This document shows positions 1 to 35,403 of a stretch of DNA of 35,887 nucleotides, piece after piece (positions within the stretch are counted from its first letter, which is position 1; each line of letters starts with the position of its first letter). Made by a program: the position numbers and the translations under genes. The DNA is from Methanomicrobiales archaeon (GTDB lineage Archaea; Halobacteriota; Methanomicrobia; Methanomicrobiales; JACTUA01), in assembly GCA_029907705.1 (NCBI GenBank), contig JARYLJ010000021.1, positions 1-35,887 of the forward strand. Direction: 5' to 3'. A model generated the notes under the pieces. That model was not told where the DNA came from. It did not search any database and saw nothing but the letters and a program-made list of their open reading frames with translations.

Positions 1-165
1 GATCCTGTCAGGATACGGGAACTCAATTTACAGCTTAAGGTGTACACTGCCGTCTGATTTCCGTGTATTTTTATCAACATCCATAATTTTCCAACAAGAA
101 TAAGTGTATGAAAAACCAGTTTCTATTACGCATTTTCTCCCCAAAAAAACGCGAAAAAATGCGGT
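1..165 (+). promoter_or_regulatory. Probable CRISPR leader
   Basis: This AT-rich stretch lies directly upstream of the first repeat. The repeats end in ATTGAAAC, the usual 5' handle of mature crRNAs in type I/III systems, so the array should be transcribed on the plus strand and the leader should be on this side. A TATA-like GTATTTTTAT sits at about 64-73. A perfect 8-nt inverted repeat, CGCATTTT at 129-136 and AAAATGCG at 156-163, ends two bases before the first repeat. Bases 1-57 are open in one frame and could be the last codons of an upstream gene, but 18 residues are too few to identify. No cas gene is visible. Confidence 0.6.
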
Positions 166-1799
166 CTTTCAGAGCGACATCCACGAAAACAAGGATTGAA
201 ACATCCTGGTCGGCTGAAACCCGGTGGGGTGCATCCACCTTTCAGAGCGACATCCACGAAAACAAGGATTGAAACGGATCACCCCCCAAGCCCTCGCGAC
301 CTTCCTGGAGGCTTTCAGAGCGACATCCACGAAAACAAGGATTGAAACATTCAAGGCACTCACAGGCAGCCAGCGTCACGACTTTCAGAGCGACATCCAC
401 GAAAACAAGGATTGAAACTGGAGTCGGATCTCCTGGAGGAGCCTCTGGGCCATCTTTCAGAGCGACATCCACGAAAACAAGGATTGAAACCACATCCCCC
501 CGGTAGGAATAGACCCCTATGATCACTTTCAGAGCGACATCCACGAAAACAAGGATTGAAACTGGTATTCTCGGCTAACGAGCTCCCCCACGTTGACTTT
601 CAGAGCGACATCCACGAAAACAAGGATTGAAACACCTATATACCTTTTATAACGCGCGCGCGTGTGATAACTTTCAGAGCGACATCCACGAAAACAAGGA
701 TTGAAACTCGCAGTCAGGTTGATACTGTAAGTGCCTGCCGTAGCTTTCAGAGCGACATCCACGAAAACAAGGATTGAAACTAGCCCCGCTCACCGTAGCC
801 TTCACAGACAACAGCCTTTCAGAGCGACATCCACGAAAACAAGGATTGAAACTCCTTAAACCATTCTTGTAAGTGCCAGCGGTAGCCCTTTCAGAGCGAC
901 ATCCACGAAAACAAGGATTGAAACTCACCATTGTCCTGGACGAGGCTGACGAAATTTTCCCTTTCAGAGCGACATCCACGAAAACAAGGATTGAAACCAT
1001 CAGGACCGGCAAGGATCGTGAACAGCTATGATGCTTTCAGAGCGACATCCACGAAAACAAGGATTGAAACCTACTTTGACTCACGACCCGACCTTCTATC
1101 CGACACTTTCAGAGCGACATCCACGAAAACAAGGATTGAAACTCTTTATTCGCACATTCGAAGTTATCACGCTTGCATACTTTCAGAGCGACATCCACGA
1201 AAACAAGGATTGAAACAAAATCAAACCTTCGTTTTCTGTAACACTTGTGAATACCTTTCAGAGCGACATCCACGAAAACAAGGATTGAAACTTTCAATAA
1301 AGTAGTAAAAAATTCTCTAAGGCGGACTTTCAGAGCGACATCCACGAAAACAAGGATTGAAACTCTCGATAAAAAGCTTAATATTGTGATAACTAGGCTT
1401 TCAGAGCGACATCCACGAAAACAAGGATTGAAACTGATATAAAATCCGCTTATCCTGCCGAAATAGCAAATCTTTCAGAGCGACATCCACGAAAACAAGG
1501 ATTGAAACCATTATGATAATTTTGTATCACCTTTTATGCAAAACTTTCAGAGCGACATCCACGAAAACAAGGATTGAAACTTATATATTTTATGTCTGCG
1601 TCCTTCTCTTTTTCTTCTTTCAGAGCGACATCCACGAAAACAAGGATTGAAACACGGGGATAAATGAAGGAGAAAAAGAAGATTCAGGACCTTTCAGAGC
1701 GACATCCACGAAAACAAGGATTGAAACTCTGTTTGTCGGTGACCAGATACGGCTCTGAGTGCCTTTCAGAGCGACATCCACGAAAACAAGGATTGAAAC
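166..1799 (+). CRISPR. CRISPR array, 23 repeats of 37 nt, 22 spacers
   Basis: Twenty-three copies of a 37-nt repeat, beginning CTTTCAGAGCGACATCC and ending CAAGGATTGAAAC, start at 166, 239, 312, 382, 454, 526, 597, 671, 744, 816, 888, 961, 1034, 1106, 1180, 1255, 1327, 1398, 1472, 1544, 1617, 1691 and 1763. I found no difference between copies, including the last one. Spacers are 33-38 nt. The GATTGAAAC end is typical of archaeal type I-A/I-B or III arrays, but the subtype cannot be set without cas genes. Spacers S1-S13 are mostly GC-rich to balanced, S14-S20 are AT-rich, and S21-S22 balanced again. Readable spacers: S7 (634-670) resembles a promoter; S8 (708-743) and S10 (853-887) are related; S11 (925-960) encodes a helicase motif II; S18 (1435-1471) encodes a family B polymerase motif A. 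All apparent reading frames through the array are products of the repeat. Confidence 0.99.
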
Positions 1800-1962: not shown

Positions 1963-3294
1963 ATGCGATATATAGAAAGAATGGAATGGTTCATCCTCCC
2001 GGCCGTGGCGGTGATTGTTTATGCCACGGTCGCGGTTAATTTCTACATCAGGAGGCCTCTGGGGGATCGCATCGTGTTCTACGGGCCCATCATGGCGATC
2101 AAGACCTTCAGAGTGGGTTTTCTAGATACATTCCTGAGATTCCGTTCTGCATTGAAGGTCTACGGCACCATCGGGGCGTTCATGGTCGTGGTGGTATCCA
2201 TTTTCATGACTTTTTCTCTGCTGCTCATCTTCCCCCAGTTCATCTCCCAACCGCCACCCCCCACCGGCATACATGATCCGAGGAATATTCTCGCGATTCC
2301 AGGGCTTAACCAGGCGATCCCGTTCACCCTCGCCGTCTGGTTGGGCTTACTGCTCACGATCTTTGTCCATGAGTTCGGACATGGTATACTCGCCCGTGTA
2401 GAGTCGATGCGTGTGAAGAGTATGGGCGTGCTGTTCGCGGTCCTTCCCATAGGTGCGTTCGTCGAGCCCGATGAAGGGGATGTGGAAAAAGCGAAGGGCA
2501 TTTCGAAGATCCGGATGTTCGGAGCGGGCATCGCAAACAATCTGCTGGCCGCTCTCGTCTCCTTCGGGCTCCTCTTCCTCCTCCTTGGCTACGCGGTTCC
2601 TTCTCCCGTTCCCCTTGTATGGGGATATTACGGCGGCTCACCCGCAGAGCGGGCAGGTATCCCACCCCTGGGCATCGTGAAGGAGATCGGCGGGGTGGAG
2701 GTTGATACGATCGATGGGGCGTTCCAGGCACTGGAACGGTATGCCCCCGGAGATGAAGTCGCATTCAGGATCGAGAAAGGAGGCATGGAGAATACCTACC
2801 TGCTGAGGGTGGAGGAATGGCCTGAGAACATGTCAGGAAAGAGTCCTGTATTTACGGGTATATTCTATTACAATCCTGTATCAGTCAAGGATACACTGGA
2901 GAGGAGTGCGGAGCTGGGGATCCTTCTCCCGCTATTTCTGCTTGCCGTGCCACTCAACGTCTTCATCGACGGCAACACCGCAGGGCTGGATATTCTGGTG
3001 ATGGACTCCCCGGTCTCGGTCGCCTGGATGGTGCCCTTCCCGGGCTTCTTCTGGTTCATGATACAGGCGCTCTTCTGGTGTGGATGGTTCAATGCGGCGG
3101 TGGGAATCTTCAATGCCCTCCCGCTGCTACCACTGGATGGCGGATATATCATGAAGGAGTGCGTCGAGAGGTTCTTCGAACGGAGGGGCTGGTCACGGTA
3201 CTCCTACCTCGCGGTGAGTGCGATCAGCAGCATCATCGCATTCGTGATACTGACCATCATCGCACTGCCGATACTATCGCAATTTCTCAAATGA
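1963..3294 (+). CDS. Site-2 protease family (M50) membrane metalloprotease with PDZ domain
   Basis: A 443-residue polytopic membrane protein. The zinc-binding motif HEFGH is at residues 136-140 inside a hydrophobic segment, and the second M50 motif, LPLLPLDGG, ends at 394 with its metal-binding Asp at 392. A PDZ-like region, with GSPAERAGIPPLG at about 225-237, lies between them. This is the site-2 protease layout: intramembrane cleavage of membrane-anchored substrates, often signalling proteins; the substrate here is unknown. Hydrophobic segments are near residues 8-27, 70-92, 120-138, 190-212, 320-335, 355-385 and 415-440. An alternative ATG at 1981 (MEWFILPA) would start directly at the first membrane segment and may be the true start, since no ribosome binding site precedes either. 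The TPR gene follows under its own promoter. Confidence 0.93.
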   Translation: MRYIERMEWFILPAVAVIVYATVAVNFYIRRPLGDRIVFYGPIMAIKTFRVGFLDTFLRFRSALKVYGTIGAFMVVVVSIFMTFSLLLIFPQFISQPPPPTGIHDPRNILAIPGLNQAIPFTLAVWLGLLLTIFVHEFGHGILARVESMRVKSMGVLFAVLPIGAFVEPDEGDVEKAKGISKIRMFGAGIANNLLAALVSFGLLFLLLGYAVPSPVPLVWGYYGGSPAERAGIPPLGIVKEIGGVEVDTIDGAFQALERYAPGDEVAFRIEKGGMENTYLLRVEEWPENMSGKSPVFTGIFYYNPVSVKDTLERSAELGILLPLFLLAVPLNVFIDGNTAGLDILVMDSPVSVAWMVPFPGFFWFMIQALFWCGWFNAAVGIFNALPLLPLDGGYIMKECVERFFERRGWSRYSYLAVSAISSIIAFVILTIIALPILSQFLK

Positions 3295-3323
3295 ACATAC
3301 GTCAGCCCGATTGGGGGTATCAA

Positions 3324-3340
3324 AAAGGGTATATACGTTT
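3324..3340 (+). promoter_or_regulatory. Archaeal promoter (BRE/TATA) of the TPR gene
   Basis: AAAAAGGGTATATACG has a purine-rich BRE-like stretch followed by a TATA box centred near 3333. Transcription would start about 25 bases further on, near 3360, upstream of the ATG at 3392. This argues against the longer open frame beginning at 3311. Confidence 0.5.
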
Positions 3341-3391
3341 TTGCCGAATATTCCATTCAGTGGCCAGAGAATCCACCATCACCTGATCCAC

Positions 3392-4069
3392 ATGAGAGAA
3401 GTCCCGAAGAGCAAGCAATATGCCATCGGCTGGTACAATGAGGGTATCGCACATCTGGGGATTAGAGATTACGAGGAGGCCCTATCGTTCATGGACAGGG
3501 CGCTCGGAATCGTTCCGAACCACCCGGACTTTCTGATCGGAAAAGGGGATGTGCTCTATGCGATGGAGAGGTATGATGAAGCATTCGAGAACTTCAGAAA
3601 TGCGATACGGGAGGAGCCGGAGAACCGTTCCGCCTGGCTGAAGGCGGGCCTATGCCTGTTGAAGCTGAATAAATTCGTGGATGCGCTGGAGATCTTCGAA
3701 TATCTGCTGAAAGGGGATGCATATGACGGCGAGTTATGGTTCGCCCGAGGGGTTGCACTCCTGAATCTGGGGCAGAAAGAGGAGGCACTTGAATCCTTCA
3801 GGAATGCGAGAAGGCTGAAGCCGGATCAGCCTGCGCTTTGGCACGCACTCGCGTCACTGGAAGAAGATCATGGGGAGGCAATCGAACTCCTAAAAAGGGG
3901 GCACAGCATCGATCCAACGAATCTGGATATCATGCTGGCGCTGGCGGGGCGTTTCCTCGTACTCGGTCTGACAGAAGAGGCGCGTCTCTGGTGCAGCCGT
4001 GCAGAAGCACTCTATTCCGGAAATCGCCGCCTGGAGGAGGTGGCCAGGCGCTGCCCCCCTGCCATCTGA
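3392..4069 (+). CDS. Tetratricopeptide repeat protein
   Basis: A 225-residue soluble protein made almost wholly of TPR-type helical hairpins. Visible units include AIGWYNEGIAHLGIRDYEEA, ALLNLGQKEEALESFRNAR and LALAGRFLVLGLTEEARLW, with the usual small/aromatic pattern and Pro near unit ends (VPNHPDF, KPDQPAL). TPR proteins are protein-interaction scaffolds; the partner is not evident. The start at 3392 was chosen because the TATA box near 3333 predicts transcription from about 3360; the open frame runs back to 3311 but those residues are not TPR-like. The gene converges with the DUF89 gene (15-nt gap). A second TPR protein is at 22411-23208. Confidence 0.85.
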   Translation: MREVPKSKQYAIGWYNEGIAHLGIRDYEEALSFMDRALGIVPNHPDFLIGKGDVLYAMERYDEAFENFRNAIREEPENRSAWLKAGLCLLKLNKFVDALEIFEYLLKGDAYDGELWFARGVALLNLGQKEEALESFRNARRLKPDQPALWHALASLEEDHGEAIELLKRGHSIDPTNLDIMLALAGRFLVLGLTEEARLWCSRAEALYSGNRRLEEVARRCPPAI

Positions 4070-4084
4070 ATCACCAGCACAGGA

Positions 4085-4936
4085 TCACTCCCTGAGGATC
4101 GCGACATATGAGCCGCGAGGCACACCGACACTCTCCGCAATCACATCGCACTTCACCGCCATCATGAATGCCACGGGGGGGAGATCCCTCCTTTCGTCGA
4201 GCGATTCGTAATTCGCCATCCCCTTGGCGACGATCAGGCTGCACTTCTCCAGCGCCTCTCTCAATTCGGCAGGAAACTTTTCTGGATTCACGCCCACATC
4301 TCCGCTGCCTGTGGTGGTGATGAGATCGACCTCTCTATCCAGTCCCAGTGCTACTGCATCCTTCATCGTGGCATCGTTCAGGATCGGCGCACCCTTCACC
4401 ACCAGGGCTATATGTGCGCCCTTGCGCCTGAGGTGGTCGATCACGAGCCTGTCGAAGACCACTTCACCGCAGTTGTCAGTGAAGTATACCACCCGTCTGG
4501 ATAGATTCATTATGCGATCCGTATGATCGACCGTCAATCCCTTTTCCATCTCTTTCTCGAAGAAACCGAGAAAATCCTCGCTGATATTGTGTTTCTCCAC
4601 ACCATAATCTAGTGTATTTCCCACGATGCTCGCCAGGGCCTTCTCCCGGAAGGTGCTGAGCCTGCCCTTTACCTTTCTGCACACTTCAGACGCGATCCGG
4701 TTGTTCCATCTTTTAAGCTCTGCGAACGGATCGGAGCTCCCCACAAGGCTGTAGGCGAGACCATGCACCTCGCTCGCGATCAGCGGCGCATGGACAGGGC
4801 GCGAGCGGTACGATTCCAGGATATTACGGCATCTTTCGACGATTTCTTTGATCTTCTCCTCATCATTGGTGACAAGCCTGCACTCATAAGCCACACGCGA
4901 TGCAAGGCAATCAAAACAGCGTGAATCGATTCTCAT
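4085..4936 (-). CDS. DUF89 / ARMT1-like family protein, putative damage-control phosphatase
   Basis: A 283-residue protein with the features of archaeal DUF89: an N-terminal CFDC pair (residues 8-11), the metal-site motif YFTDNCGEVVFD, and TTTGSGDVGVNPE followed by LIVAKGMANYESL. In this family the conserved Asp/Asn residues bind a divalent metal, and characterised members dephosphorylate damaged or surplus phosphometabolites. The substrate here cannot be read from sequence. Length is normal for the archaeal subfamily. The gene lies downstream of tRNA-Pro on the same strand, with 25 nt between them. A run of seven Gs at 4175-4181 lies within the gene and the frame is intact across it, a useful control for the frameshifts seen elsewhere. 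Confidence 0.85.
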   Translation of the reverse strand: MRIDSRCFDCLASRVAYECRLVTNDEEKIKEIVERCRNILESYRSRPVHAPLIASEVHGLAYSLVGSSDPFAELKRWNNRIASEVCRKVKGRLSTFREKALASIVGNTLDYGVEKHNISEDFLGFFEKEMEKGLTVDHTDRIMNLSRRVVYFTDNCGEVVFDRLVIDHLRRKGAHIALVVKGAPILNDATMKDAVALGLDREVDLITTTGSGDVGVNPEKFPAELREALEKCSLIVAKGMANYESLDERRDLPPVAFMMAVKCDVIAESVGVPRGSYVAILRE

Positions 4937-5289: not shown

Positions 5290-6068
5290 CTCCCCCTGAA
5301 GAGAGTCTTTGCCACCCTGTCGAGGAAGCTTTCAGATACCTTCTCGGGGACATCCTCATAACGTATACCGGCAATATTCGCAGCCACCCTCTTGAAGGCC
5401 CGGGAAGCATCGGAGTTCGGATACTTCACGACCACCGGTGTCTTGTAGGCGGCTGCTCTCCTCACATTCGCATCCTCCGGGATGATCCCTATCATCTTCA
5501 CGCCCAGCGATCTCTCCATCTTCGCCTGAACGGTGTCGTTCTGATCCATCCCGGCCCTGTTCACGATCGCAGACTGAGCCTTCCCCCCGACCACCTCTGT
5601 GAGGATCTTGGTCTTGAGTGCGTCGACGATGGAAGAGATCTCAGGGTTCACCACGAGGATCACCTCGTCTGCGATGGCGAGGGGTATGACCCCATCCCTG
5701 CTGATGCCTGCAGGTGCATCGATCAGTAGGTAATCGCACCGGTTCACAATCTCTCTCAGGGCATCCCGCATCCTCTCAGGGTTCGCATGCTGGAACCCCT
5801 GCAGCGAGATACCACTGGGAATCACCTTTACACCGGCAGGACCCTCATATATCGCCTCGTCGATCGCTGCTTTGCCTGCGAGCACCTCGTGCAATGTGAC
5901 GGGTACGTCCTCCAGACCTATGATCAGCCCGAGATTTGCCATTCCGATGTCGGCATCCATGATATAGGTCTCTTTCCCGAGCATTGCCATTGCCGTCCCG
6001 AGGTTCACGGTCACCGTCGTTTTGCCTGTCCCGCCTTTGCCAGATGCAATGGTATATGAATGTATCAT
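5286..6068 (-). CDS. minD: MinD/ParA-family P-loop ATPase
   Basis: A 260-residue ATPase with the deviant Walker A motif SGKGGTGKTT (residues 9-18, signature Lys11, catalytic Lys16), Walker A' DADIGMANLG and Walker B YLLIDAPAGIS. The C-terminus (ESFLDRVAKTLFRGR) could form the amphipathic membrane-targeting helix found in MinD proteins. Such ATPases dimerise on ATP, bind membrane and position other complexes. The start at 6068 fits the family (Met a few residues before SGKGG) and is preceded by AAGGAT; the open frame runs upstream to 6143 and overlaps the roadblock gene. The 65-nt AT-rich gap contains AAATTTATC, a possible internal promoter. In archaea, single MinD proteins seldom act with MinC or MinE, and none is seen here. 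Confidence 0.92.
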   Translation of the reverse strand: MIHSYTIASGKGGTGKTTVTVNLGTAMAMLGKETYIMDADIGMANLGLIIGLEDVPVTLHEVLAGKAAIDEAIYEGPAGVKVIPSGISLQGFQHANPERMRDALREIVNRCDYLLIDAPAGISRDGVIPLAIADEVILVVNPEISSIVDALKTKILTEVVGGKAQSAIVNRAGMDQNDTVQAKMERSLGVKMIGIIPEDANVRRAAAYKTPVVVKYPNSDASRAFKRVAANIAGIRYEDVPEKVSESFLDRVAKTLFRGR

Positions 6069-6133
6069 TTGGGATCCTTCTGTTTCAGAATTTGAATCAA
6101 TATTATGATAAATTTTTCTCTTCTGGTTTTCAC

Positions 6134-6676
6134 CTATAACCATTGTTTTAAAATTTTTGAGATATTATCCGTTATATCCTTCAAACCAACCTCCACAAGG
6201 TCTTCTTCACCTTTCAGGATACAGAGAAGACTGACAGGTCCATGCTGCAGTGGGATCAGTCTGACCGCTGGATCGCTGATTTTTTCACCTTTCACGAAGA
6301 GCTGACTGTATACTGCCGCATCCTCCTCTGCATCCACACCGGAGGACGCCACGAGAAGACCGTCGAGAGATGCGATACTGATCTTCTCCAGTCCATAGAG
6401 GTCGGCGAGAGCCATGAGTCCTTCCCCCATATCCTGATACCTCTCCGGTGAGATGGTGCGGGTGGCTTCAGGGATATGGGGGGTGCCTCGCTCTTTACGA
6501 CTTTCGAGCCGGTTTTCGTTATACTCCATGGCAGTGGATGTGTCCAGGCTTCCCCTCCCTCGAACCGATCCCGAAGTTCCCTCCATCTCCATCAGCCACC
6601 GGAGGAGGATGATGCCTGTGATGATGAGCAGGGCCAGAATCCCGATAAAGAATAGTGAAGCGTTGATATCGTCCAT
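6134..6676 (-). CDS. Membrane-anchored roadblock/LC7-domain protein
   Basis: A 180-residue protein. Residues 7-29 are one hydrophobic helix (SLFFIGILALLIITGIILL), followed by a charged, low-complexity linker of about 55 residues and a C-terminal roadblock/LC7-type domain from about residue 85 (LYGLEKISIASLDGLLVASS, then SLLCILKGEEDLVEVGLKDI). Roadblock proteins dimerise and regulate small GTPases (MglB-MglA) or act as adaptors. No GTPase gene is adjacent; the neighbour is MinD. The gene begins 3 nt after the DUF2226-like gene and precedes minD, so the set is probably one transcript. The roadblock assignment rests on the pattern 'sisl DG lvass' and the closing helix, not on an alignment. Confidence 0.78.
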   Translation of the reverse strand: MDDINASLFFIGILALLIITGIILLRWLMEMEGTSGSVRGRGSLDTSTAMEYNENRLESRKERGTPHIPEATRTISPERYQDMGEGLMALADLYGLEKISIASLDGLLVASSGVDAEEDAAVYSQLFVKGEKISDPAVRLIPLQHGPVSLLCILKGEEDLVEVGLKDITDNISKILKQWL

Positions 6677-6679
6677 AAC

Positions 6680-7288
6680 TCACACCTTCTCCCTGACCAG
6701 ATGATCGAGCTCCAGCTTCTCTGCGATCACTCTGGAGTTCTCCTTCATCTTCTCTGCGATCCTTTCGAGGTCCATGGTATCCAGAAGACTGAGATCGTCG
6801 TTCTGTCCTGCAGCCCCTGATCCCCTCCGGAGATCTTTTGGGCTTTCACTCGCCTTCACGGGTCCGCTGTACCTGTGAGGGGATGCAATGGCCTCCTCGC
6901 GGGGTTTTATCATCTCTTTTCTGGAGACCGGCTCCCTCGGTGGTTCCCGTGCGGGGTTCATCACCTTCAGCGGCTCCGATTCGACCCTGAGAACACAGTT
7001 TTTATTGAACTCCCTCGTCAGCTCGACCTGTGCATCCGTGAGGCAGAATAGCTCTGCATCCACCTCTGTGTTGTCAAGGGCACTCAACAATTCCAGCGCT
7101 GCCTTCCCGCATACCGTGCCGCAATCGGCGAGGATCAGCCGCCCTTTCTCCAGTACCACTGTCCACTTGGCATCCTGAATGAAAAACGAGAGATACCCGG
7201 TGAACCTCGATGCACCCATCTCCCCGAGTATTTCCCTCAGCGGAGCGCCCTTCCGGATCGACTGGAATATCCCGCGGGGAAGTTGCAT
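6680..7288 (-). CDS. DUF2226-like archaeal protein, first gene of the roadblock/MinD operon
   Basis: A 202-residue protein. The first 110 residues (MQLPRGIFQSIRKG, RFTGYLSFFIQDAKWTVVLE, KGRLILADCGTVCGKAALEL) resemble the archaeal DUF2226 domain, in which a 'FTGY' strand and a 'G.liiA' strand recur; a PATAN/DUF4388-like fold is an alternative. The rest (115-202) is Pro/Arg/Glu-rich and probably disordered, ending in a predicted helix (LERIAEKMKENSRVIAEKLE). The start at 7288 was chosen because a TATA box (TTATAAAT, 7314-7321) implies transcription from about 7290, giving a leaderless message; the upstream ATG at 7312 would fall before that. Function unknown. It is divergent from the response regulator gene. 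Confidence 0.7.
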   Translation of the reverse strand: MQLPRGIFQSIRKGAPLREILGEMGASRFTGYLSFFIQDAKWTVVLEKGRLILADCGTVCGKAALELLSALDNTEVDAELFCLTDAQVELTREFNKNCVLRVESEPLKVMNPAREPPREPVSRKEMIKPREEAIASPHRYSGPVKASESPKDLRRGSGAAGQNDDLSLLDTMDLERIAEKMKENSRVIAEKLELDHLVREKV

Positions 7289-32955: not shown

Positions 32956-35403
32956 ATGGCTTCGGATCAAACAATGATACCGCTGGTGGAGAGCACCGGT
33001 GCACCCGTCAGGCTCGCGATCATGCAGATCGAGTACTCGAATACCCCCGACGGACCGGTTCTGCACATCTTCGGGAGAGGGTCCGACGGTCAGGCACTCA
33101 GAATCGAGGCGACTGGCTTCCTCCCGTACTTTTATGCACCTCTCGAACAGGTCGATCAGAGACCGCTGCCCCCTACCTTGAAGAGGGAGGGGGGGACGGT
33201 ATATCACTCGCTCAGGGGGGTACCTCTGAGACGGCTCATCGCGCAGAAACCGACAGATGTGAGAGATCTCAGGGAGGGTTTCGATCATTACGAGGCGGAT
33301 ATCCCTTTTACGATACGGTTTATGATCGACTGCCGCCTCACCTCGGGGGTGGAGGCGCCGGCAGCCAGAAGCGAATACCACTCGCTCGTACCGGCAGATC
33401 TGCATGTTCCCCCCCGGGTATGCATTATGGATATCGAATGCGAGGATGAGCGTGGCTTTCCGGCTCCCGAGCGGGATCGGATCATCTGCATCACCTGCTG
33501 GGACTCATACGCGAGGGACTACACAACACTACTCCTCGCCAGCGGAACACCCGAACCTGATTTCTCCACAATGAGCGAAGGAGGGGGCCTGAAGAATGGC
33601 TGCTTCAGAAAAGGCGTGCACCGGATAATGACTTTCAAAGACGAGCGAGATCTGCTGAGGGCGCTCGCCTCCTTCATGCAGGAGAGGGATCCTGATATCC
33701 TCGCCGGCTGGAACTTTCTCGAATTCGACCTCCGATATCTGATTGGGAGGATGGAGGCTCTCGGCCTTGCGGCCGACTCCCTCGCGAGGCTTCCCGGCAG
33801 GATCGAGAGGAACGCGATAAGAGGCAGAGTGGCATTCGATCTCCTGGAGGCTTACAGGAAGCTTCATGGGGCCCGACTGGAGTCCTATAGGCTCGATGCC
33901 GTGGCGGAGGATGAGCTGGGGGAGAAAAAGGTAAGATATCCGGGTACACTCTCATCCCTGTGGCGGGATCACCCGGCGCAGCTGGTGGAGTATAACTTCA
34001 AGGATGTGGAGCTGTGTGTCGGAATCGATCGGAAGAACAGGATCCTAAACTTTTATCTCGAGATCGCCAGATATGTGGGCTGCCCACTCGATCGTACGCT
34101 GAACTCGTCGAATGTGATCGATATTTACATCCTCCGTAAGGCACACGGCCAGTTCGTGCTTCCATCCAAGGGTTTTGCGGCAGCCGATGAATTCGAAGGG
34201 GCGACTGTATTCGACCCCACACGGGGCATCAAGGAGAACGTCGTCGTCCTCGATCTGAAGTCGCTCTACCCGATGGCGATGATGACGATCAATGCCTCAC
34301 CAGAGACGAAGGATCCCCTGGGGGAGTACCGAGCTCCCAATGGTGTGCGTTTCAAAAAGAGTCCTGATGGCCTTACGAGGAGCATCCTGAGCGAACTCCT
34401 CGGGGAGCGGGAGGCAAAGAAGAGGCTTCGGGACAGCCACCAGATCGGCTCCCCTGAGTATATGCTCTACGATATGCAGCAGAATGTGATCAAGGTGATC
34501 ATGAACACGTACTACGGTGTGAGCGGGTATGCGAGGTTCAGATTGTACGACCGGGAGATTGGAGCAGCGATCACTTCTGTGGGGCGTGCGATCATCGAGC
34601 ATACGAGGAGGGTGATCGAAGGGATGGGGTATCACGTGCTGTACGGAGATACCGACTCATGTATGGTGAATCTGCCTGTGAGTGATGTGGGGGCGATCGT
34701 CGATTCCGCAAGGGAGATAGAGAAGAAGGTGAACGAAAGCTACGACGAATTTTCGCGTGAGGTGTTGAACGCGGAGAGGCATTACTTCTCAATAAAGTTC
34801 GAGAAGATATATCGCCGTTTCTTTCAGGCAGGGCGCAAAAAGAGATATGCAGGACTTCTCGTCTGGAAGGAGGGTCAGGCGGTCGACGATATCGATATCG
34901 TGGGGTTCGAGATCCGAAGGAGTGACTCGCCGCATATAACGCGTATCGTCCAGAAAGAGGTGATCGAGATGATCCTCCGTGGCAAGGGCTACGTGGCGGT
35001 CAAATCATACCTGGGCGAAGTGATCAGGAACTACCGTGCAGGCAGATACTCCCTGGAGGAGATCGGAATTCCAGGCGGAATTGGGAAGGATCTCGACCAG
35101 TATGAAACCGACGATGCCCATGTGAGGGGTGCAAAATACGCGAATATCCATCTCGGCGCGACATTCTCGAGGGGCAGCAAACCAAAGCGAGTGTATATCA
35201 AACACGTAAAGGCAAAGTATCCCCAGACCGATGTCCTCTGCTTCGAGTATGCGGATCAGGTCCCATCTGAATTTGTCATCGATCTGGAGACGATGCTGGA
35301 GAAGACTGTGAAACAGCCCATATCACGCATTATTGAGGCGGTGGGCTGGAAATGGCAGGATGTGGATCCCTCCCATACAACCCTGGCGCAGTTCGGTTTC
35401 TGA
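32956..35403 (+). CDS. polB: DNA polymerase family B (PolB)
   Basis: An 815-residue replicative-type polymerase. The 3'-5' exonuclease motifs are present: Exo I CIMDIEC (Asp159, Glu161), Exo II NFLEFD (253-258) and Exo III YNFKD (346-350). The polymerase motifs follow: motif A DLKSLYP (433-439), motif B KVIMNTYYG (513-521) and motif C YGDTDS (563-568). All catalytic carboxylates are there, so both proofreading and synthesis should work. Length is typical of archaeal PolB without inteins. GGGGTG precedes the ATG at 32956; it starts 4 nt after malate dehydrogenase, probably on the same transcript. Its motif A DNA differs clearly from that in CRISPR spacer S18. Confidence 0.98.
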   Translation: MASDQTMIPLVESTGAPVRLAIMQIEYSNTPDGPVLHIFGRGSDGQALRIEATGFLPYFYAPLEQVDQRPLPPTLKREGGTVYHSLRGVPLRRLIAQKPTDVRDLREGFDHYEADIPFTIRFMIDCRLTSGVEAPAARSEYHSLVPADLHVPPRVCIMDIECEDERGFPAPERDRIICITCWDSYARDYTTLLLASGTPEPDFSTMSEGGGLKNGCFRKGVHRIMTFKDERDLLRALASFMQERDPDILAGWNFLEFDLRYLIGRMEALGLAADSLARLPGRIERNAIRGRVAFDLLEAYRKLHGARLESYRLDAVAEDELGEKKVRYPGTLSSLWRDHPAQLVEYNFKDVELCVGIDRKNRILNFYLEIARYVGCPLDRTLNSSNVIDIYILRKAHGQFVLPSKGFAAADEFEGATVFDPTRGIKENVVVLDLKSLYPMAMMTINASPETKDPLGEYRAPNGVRFKKSPDGLTRSILSELLGEREAKKRLRDSHQIGSPEYMLYDMQQNVIKVIMNTYYGVSGYARFRLYDREIGAAITSVGRAIIEHTRRVIEGMGYHVLYGDTDSCMVNLPVSDVGAIVDSAREIEKKVNESYDEFSREVLNAERHYFSIKFEKIYRRFFQAGRKKRYAGLLVWKEGQAVDDIDIVGFEIRRSDSPHITRIVQKEVIEMILRGKGYVAVKSYLGEVIRNYRAGRYSLEEIGIPGGIGKDLDQYETDDAHVRGAKYANIHLGATFSRGSKPKRVYIKHVKAKYPQTDVLCFEYADQVPSEFVIDLETMLEKTVKQPISRIIEAVGWKWQDVDPSHTTLAQFGF

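What the first reader, a model, noticed from the sequence alone, without database searches (positions are those of the whole stretch)
1435..1471. CRISPR spacer S18 encodes family B DNA polymerase motif A
Read on the plus strand from 1436, the spacer is open for 12 codons and gives DIKSAYPAEIAN. This fits motif A (DxxSxYP), and is closest in form to protein-primed polymerases such as phi29 (as I recall, DVNSLYPAQM). The host PolB motif A (DLKSLYPM at 34254-34281) differs at the DNA level, so this is not self-targeting. The spacer lies in an AT-rich block (S14-S20), so the target is probably an AT-rich virus or plasmid with its own PolB.
Basis: partly seen in the sequence, partly recalled or inferred. 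Interest (0 to 1): 0.7.

Follow-up and report, generated by a model that had tools for sequence, protein, structure and literature searches.

The report
CRISPR spacer copied from viral DNA-polymerase gene
A methane-producing archaeon carries in its CRISPR immune memory a 37-letter piece of a DNA-polymerase gene from an unknown AT-rich virus-like element, so it has probably met a kind of virus not yet described for its group; the immune memory itself is of an ordinary kind.

Summary
S18 (1435-1471) lies between perfect 37-nt repeats and reads DIKSAYPAEIAN on the plus strand. A DxxSxYP motif in any of the 22 spacers arises in 0.4% of shuffles. The polymerase reading is supported by a relative: a 9.6-kb, 31% GC contig (L119) in a Methanomicrobiales MAG encodes exactly the same 12 residues at motif A of a DNA_pol_B_2 polymerase. 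It shares 30/37 bases with S18, and all 7 differences are silent. Chance expectation of such a match in the 232 genomes searched is about 3e-7. S14 (minus strand) encodes a second conserved stretch of the same polymerase (3 of 20,000 shuffles); S20 is only suggestive. Nearest named relatives of the polymerase are those of haloarchaeal His1 and His2, not phi29. The host has a type I-B cas operon ending at a contig edge; no Csm1-type Cas10 was found. No near-identical protospacer turned up in the IMG/VR, phage, plasmid or Methanomicrobiales genome searches. The actual protospacer, its PAM and the virion type remain unknown. This is normal CRISPR memory pointing at an apparently undescribed archaeal pPolB lineage.

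The parts
1..165 (+). Probable CRISPR leader, at the contig start; repeats end in ATTGAAAC, so the array is probably transcribed left to right
   Evidence: Position directly upstream of the first repeat; A-rich run before it. Inference.
166..1799 (+). CRISPR array: 23 identical 37-nt repeats, 22 spacers of 33-38 nt
1435..1471 (+). Spacer S18; codons 1436-1471 = DIKSAYPAEIAN, motif A of a protein-primed-type family B DNA polymerase
   Evidence: 12/12 residues and 30/37 nt with L119:2760-2796, seven silent differences; motif A columns invariant in alignment with His1/His2/ABV/phage pPolB
1143..1179 (-). Spacer S14; on the minus strand YASVITSNVRIK, matching the conserved AS-x-IT-xxx-R stretch between motifs B and C of the same polymerase
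   Evidence: 8 of 12 residues identical and 2 similar to YASLITSGCRVK at P0001 373-384; 3 of 20,000 shuffles as good; same place is the best nucleotide site of S14 in L119, 23/37
1581..1616 (-). Spacer S20; on the minus strand EKEKDADIKYI, resembling the stretch just before polymerase motif B (suggestive only)
   Evidence: P = 0.012 against all L119 ORFs, 0.0025 against the polymerase alone; not significant after correction for 22 spacers
1143..1616 (+). AT-rich spacer block S14-S20 (23-38% GC), probably several captures from AT-rich elements
   Evidence: two of the seven map to one polymerase gene
32956..35403 (+). Host replicative PolB; motif A DLKSLYPM at 34252-34275, not the source of S18
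   Evidence: 16/37 nt with S18; up to about 71% identical to Methanomicrobiales PolB over the full length

Best explanation
S18 is an ordinary CRISPR spacer, most likely of a type I-B system, in a Methanomicrobiales archaeon. It was captured from the motif A region of a protein-primed-type family B DNA polymerase gene (pPolB) on an AT-rich extrachromosomal element, most likely a small linear dsDNA archaeal virus. S14, and possibly S20, came from the same gene of the same or a related element. Shown: the array, the motif, the homologous gene, the silent-only differences, the second spacer in the same gene, and a type I-B cas operon in the genome. Inferred: that the operon adjoins the array, that the crRNA guides Cascade and Cas3 to the polB DNA, that the element is a virus replicated by protein priming, and that it infects this host.
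For: Exact 12-residue match with only silent changes in a DNA_pol_B_2 gene; chance expectation 2.5e-7 in the genomes searched. Alignment puts the match on motif A, with motifs B (ILNSLYGK) and C (STDS) also intact in the relative. S14 maps in frame to the same gene. The relative is 31% GC against 52-61% in sampled contigs of its MAG and matches the AT-rich block in composition. Nearest named relatives are linear-genome archaeal viruses His1, His2 and Hardyhisp2. The host genome has Cas8b, Cas7, Cas5, Cas3, Cas6b, Cas1, Cas2 and Cas4 at a contig end, and no Csm1-type Cas10 was found. S18 has coding-strand polarity, which suits a DNA-targeting system.
Against: The true protospacer was not found: no exact or 12-codon match for S18 in IMG/VR, no convincing nucleotide match in phage or plasmid records. 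No PAM could be read from a genuine target. The relative has 7 mismatches, too many to assume it is itself targeted. Its binning with a methanogen MAG is weak host evidence, because other AT-rich PolB contigs in that bin look foreign. No other spacer of the block besides S14 is individually significant after correction.
Confidence: 0.93

Rival explanations
1. S18 comes from a pPolB gene, but of a casposon, linear plasmid or other integrated element rather than a virus.
For: pPolB is also carried by casposons and other selfish elements (PMC7544198; PMC4046053). The relative contig has no gene with a recognisable capsid or packaging family.
Against: No Cas1 was recognised among the L119 proteins scanned, and the contig is rich in small genes and membrane proteins, as in His1-like viruses. 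No tblastn match for this polymerase in 72,556 plasmid records, while the matches in phage records are viral. PF03175 is absent from the host genome.
Confidence: 0.2
2. S18 comes from a phi29-like bacteriophage or other bacterial mobile element, taken up by mistake.
For: Two IMG/VR phi29-like contigs encode YDIKSSYPA.
Against: They share only 21 and 25 of 37 bases and diverge after YPA; L119 shares 30 and all 12 residues. S14 also fits the L119 polymerase.
Confidence: 0.04
3. The motif is a coincidence and S18 targets something unrelated.
For: Short peptide motifs can arise by chance; three of the six frames are open.
Against: 0.4% for the bare motif across the array, and about 3e-7 for the exact 12-codon match in the searched genomes, which falls on motif A of a real polymerase.
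Confidence: 0.02

Closest known systems
Type I-B CRISPR-Cas memory (archaeal, Cas8b with Cst2-type Cas7)
   Same: ATTGAAAC-ending repeats, 33-38 nt spacers, Cas8b-Cas7-Cas5-Cas3-Cas6b-Cas1-Cas2-Cas4 in the same genome
   Different: The operon lies on another contig (C66, ending at its edge), so its adjacency to this array is inferred
pPolB of His1 (Halspiviridae) and His2/Hardyhisp2 (Pleolipoviridae)
   Same: Motif A DINSAYPA against DIKSAYPA; about 29-30% identity over the polymerase of the S18-matching relative
   Different: A separate deep branch in the tree; AT-rich and associated with methanogens, not halophiles; the rest of the gene content is not recognisably the same
Chaacviridae pPolB viruses of ANME-1 (PMC9894754)
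   Same: Linear 10-11 kb genomes with pPolB, found through CRISPR spacers of methane-metabolising archaea
   Different: Known from the paper only; record OP548099 is not in the collections, so sequence relation is untested
phi29-like phage DNA polymerases
   Same: Motif A of the form DxxSxYPA (L010, L127, L128)
   Different: More distant than the archaeal relatives; separate clade in the tree

Membership tests
CRISPR spacer | Unique 30-40 nt sequence between identical direct repeats | tested here: met
CRISPR spacer with identified target | Near-identical protospacer in a mobile element with PAM | tested here: not met
   None in IMG/VR, phages, plasmids or 232 Methanomicrobiales genomes; only a diverged homologue. 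Most spacers lack a known protospacer, so this limits the target claim, not the spacer claim.
Type I-B CRISPR-Cas | cas8b, cas7, cas5, cas3, cas6b, cas1, cas2, cas4 in the genome | tested here: met
Type I-B CRISPR-Cas | Operon adjacent to this array | tested here: inconclusive
   C66 ends 54 nt after cas4 and C59 begins with the array, but no overlap joins them
Family B DNA polymerase, DNA_pol_B_2 (S18-matching relative) | Profile match above the curated cut-off | tested here: met
   76 bits against 25.8, E 3.7e-21
Family B DNA polymerase, DNA_pol_B_2 (S18-matching relative) | Motifs A, B and C | tested here: met
   DIKSAYP, KIILNSLYGK, STDS
Protein-primed polymerase | Terminal protein primes replication of a linear genome with inverted terminal repeats | not testable with these tools
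   L119 is cut at both ends inside genes; no terminal repeats seen; needs complete genomes and biochemistry
Halspiviridae / Pleolipoviridae | Family capsid, spike and membrane proteins | tested here: inconclusive
   Several two- to four-helix membrane proteins, but no family match

The most novel reading that the evidence does not exclude
Methanomicrobiales methanogens are infected by a so far undescribed family of small AT-rich linear viruses with their own deep-branching protein-primed polymerase, and type I-B immunity samples that polymerase gene repeatedly.
Probability: 0.55. Interest if true: 0.55.

Novelty: new member of a known kind. Interest (0 to 1): 0.42.

Why it matters
Few viruses of Methanomicrobiales are known (for example Blf4, PMC8540584), although these archaea are important methane producers. 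The spacer, together with contig L119, gives a concrete handle (a polymerase sequence and two conserved target sites) for finding a virus lineage that the IMG/VR scans did not recover. It also shows that a spacer can be assigned to a gene through silent-only divergence even when no nucleotide protospacer is known.

Tried and rejected
Exact S18 and 12-codon degenerate scans of IMG/VR: nothing. Blastn of S18 in phages: one 22/24 hit in a human gut contig that lies antisense in a reverse-transcriptase-like gene, rejected as chance; in plasmids: two weak hits in rhizobia, rejected. All spacers against phages: only a weak Lactobacillus phage hit. L010, the only IMG/VR contig matching the D-[IMV]-[KN]-[ST]-AYPAE pattern, is a GC-rich phage-like contig whose motif lies in a 100-aa side ORF. 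Close relatives of the L119 polymerase or of its 203-aa ORF in IMG/VR: none; an alignment query found only L137 and His1/His2. S14 degenerate pattern in IMG/VR and 232 genomes: only itself. L119 DNA against 232 genomes: no convincing CRISPR spacer against it. Weaker PolB-like hits L123 and L124 are exonuclease-domain-like proteins without motif A. Structure prediction of L119 proteins was not tried, because the tool does not list such loci as allowed.

Full report
OBSERVATION. The window starts with a CRISPR array of 23 identical 37-nt repeats (166-1799) and 22 spacers. S18 is 1435-1471 and reads DIKSAYPAEIAN from 1436 on the plus strand. In shuffled arrays a DxxSxYP motif appears in any frame of any spacer in 0.4% of cases. 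The host PolB motif A (34252-34275) shares only 16 of 37 bases with S18, so S18 is not a piece of the host gene.

HOST. The window's PolB finds its closest relatives, at up to about 71% identity over the full length, in Methanomicrobiales MAGs, so the host is a Methanomicrobiales methanogen, in a family with few genomes. Its genome (G000, 1.79 Mb in 70 contigs) carries Cas8b, Cas7/Cst2, Cas5, Cas3, Cas6b, Cas1, Cas2 and Cas4 on contig C66, a type I-B operon. That contig ends 54 nt after cas4, and the window's contig begins with the probable leader and the array. No overlap joins them, so adjacency is inferred. A Csm1-type Cas10 was not found; other type III families were not tested.

THE RELATIVE. 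A degenerate codon pattern for the 12 residues, with up to 3 mismatches, was run over 232 Methanomicrobiales genomes. It matched only S18 itself and one other place, G180:C388:2761-2796, with no mismatch. A Pfam search run separately showed that this place lies within a DNA_pol_B_2 gene (76 bits against a cut-off of 25.8). Base by base, S18 and the contig (L119) agree at 30 of 37; the seven differences are all at third codon positions and all silent. Shuffled versions of S18 reached 21-23. The expected number of exact pattern matches by chance in the searched genomes is about 3e-7.

ALIGNMENT. In an alignment with His1, His2, Hardyhisp2, ABV, LCBv1 and phage polymerases the matched residues fall on motif A (D218, S221, Y223 and P224 of P0001 invariant), and motifs B and C are present. 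The nearest named relatives by tblastn are the polymerases of Hardyhisp2, His1 and His2 (E about 1e-20 to 1e-26), at about 29-30% identity; plasmid records gave no match. A tree places the sequence as a long, separate branch near those and the tectivirus-like phages, away from the phi29-like ones; its exact place is not resolved.

A SECOND SPACER. All spacers were compared, in six frames, with the likely L119 ORFs. S18 scored best (0 of 20,000 shuffles). S14, read on the minus strand, gives YASVITSNVRIK against YASLITSGCRVK of the same polymerase (3 of 20,000 shuffles; about 0.003 after correction for 22 spacers). It falls on the stretch aligned with ASYITGLTR in His1/His2. S20 gives EKEKDADIKYI against DSESDEDIKYC just before motif B (P 0.012, suggestive only). 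S13 and the rest are not significant. So at least two of the seven AT-rich spacers sample one gene, on opposite strands.

THE CONTIG. L119 is 9,623 bp, 31% GC, cut at both ends inside genes, with many small ORFs, a possible P-loop protein (5680-6291, by eye only) and a run of membrane proteins. No capsid family was recognised. Sampled contigs of its MAG are 52-61% GC. The bin also holds two AT-rich contigs with long, different PolB_2 genes (L118, L120) that look foreign to a methanogen, so binning alone is weak evidence for L119's host. The stronger link to Methanomicrobiales is the spacers themselves.

MECHANISM. Most likely the host took up spacers from the polymerase gene of an AT-rich pPolB element, and the crRNA directs the Cas8b effector and Cas3 to that DNA. 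S18 has the polarity of the coding strand and its crRNA would not pair with polymerase mRNA, which fits a DNA-targeting I-B system better than an RNA-targeting one. The flanks in L119 (TTA before S18, TAA before S14 and S20 on their own strands; read) are AT-rich, but they come from a diverged homologue and cannot define a PAM.

NOVELTY. Viruses with pPolB are known from haloarchaea, Sulfolobales and ANME-1 (Chaacviridae, PMC9894754). I found no described one for Methanomicrobiales in the literature searches made, which is not proof of absence. The CRISPR part is ordinary; the target lineage appears new.

Noticed in passing
window 708-743 and 853-887 (S8, S10): The two spacers share a core TGTAAGTGCC-GC-GTAG; on the minus strand they read TAGTYSINLTA and ATAGTYKNGLR, like repeated Ig/PKD-type domains, so they may target the same or related surface-protein genes.
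   Followed up: partly
window 925-960 (S11): Reads TIVLDEADEIF on the plus strand, resembling a DEAD-box helicase motif II; it has no other match in the host genome within 3 mismatches.
   Followed up: partly
L136:10056-10988 (G000:C47:42091-42939): A second, solitary cas1 far from the I-B operon, near AMP-binding enzyme genes and a 1195-aa ORF without Pfam match; the genome has no PF03175 match, so no casposon-type polymerase was seen.
   Followed up: partly
L119:1072-1118 and 6695-6744: Inverted repeat, 92% identical, that gives two oppositely oriented genes the same peptide MTTKKLKLSE near their starts.
   Followed up: no
L119:1976-2161 and 2110-3795: The exonuclease-like LDTET stretch lies in a short ORF upstream of, and in another frame from, the rest of the polymerase: a frame break by sequencing error or decay.
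   Followed up: no
L123:155-1741 and L124:1330-2799: Two Methanomicrobiales proteins with a PolB-exonuclease-like N-terminus (33-36% to P0001) joined to a different C-terminal part with a nuclease-like DADLxIDxTxIDIKTTK stretch.
   Followed up: partly
L010:1962-2264: A phage-like IMG/VR contig carries, besides a full pPolB (2810-4804), a 100-aa ORF with its own motif A (DINSAYPAEL), perhaps a polymerase remnant.
   Followed up: no
L152 (G438:C33): A contig with a 718-aa His2-like polymerase (DINSAYPAVM) in another family of the same phylum, probably a provirus or viral contig.
   Followed up: partly
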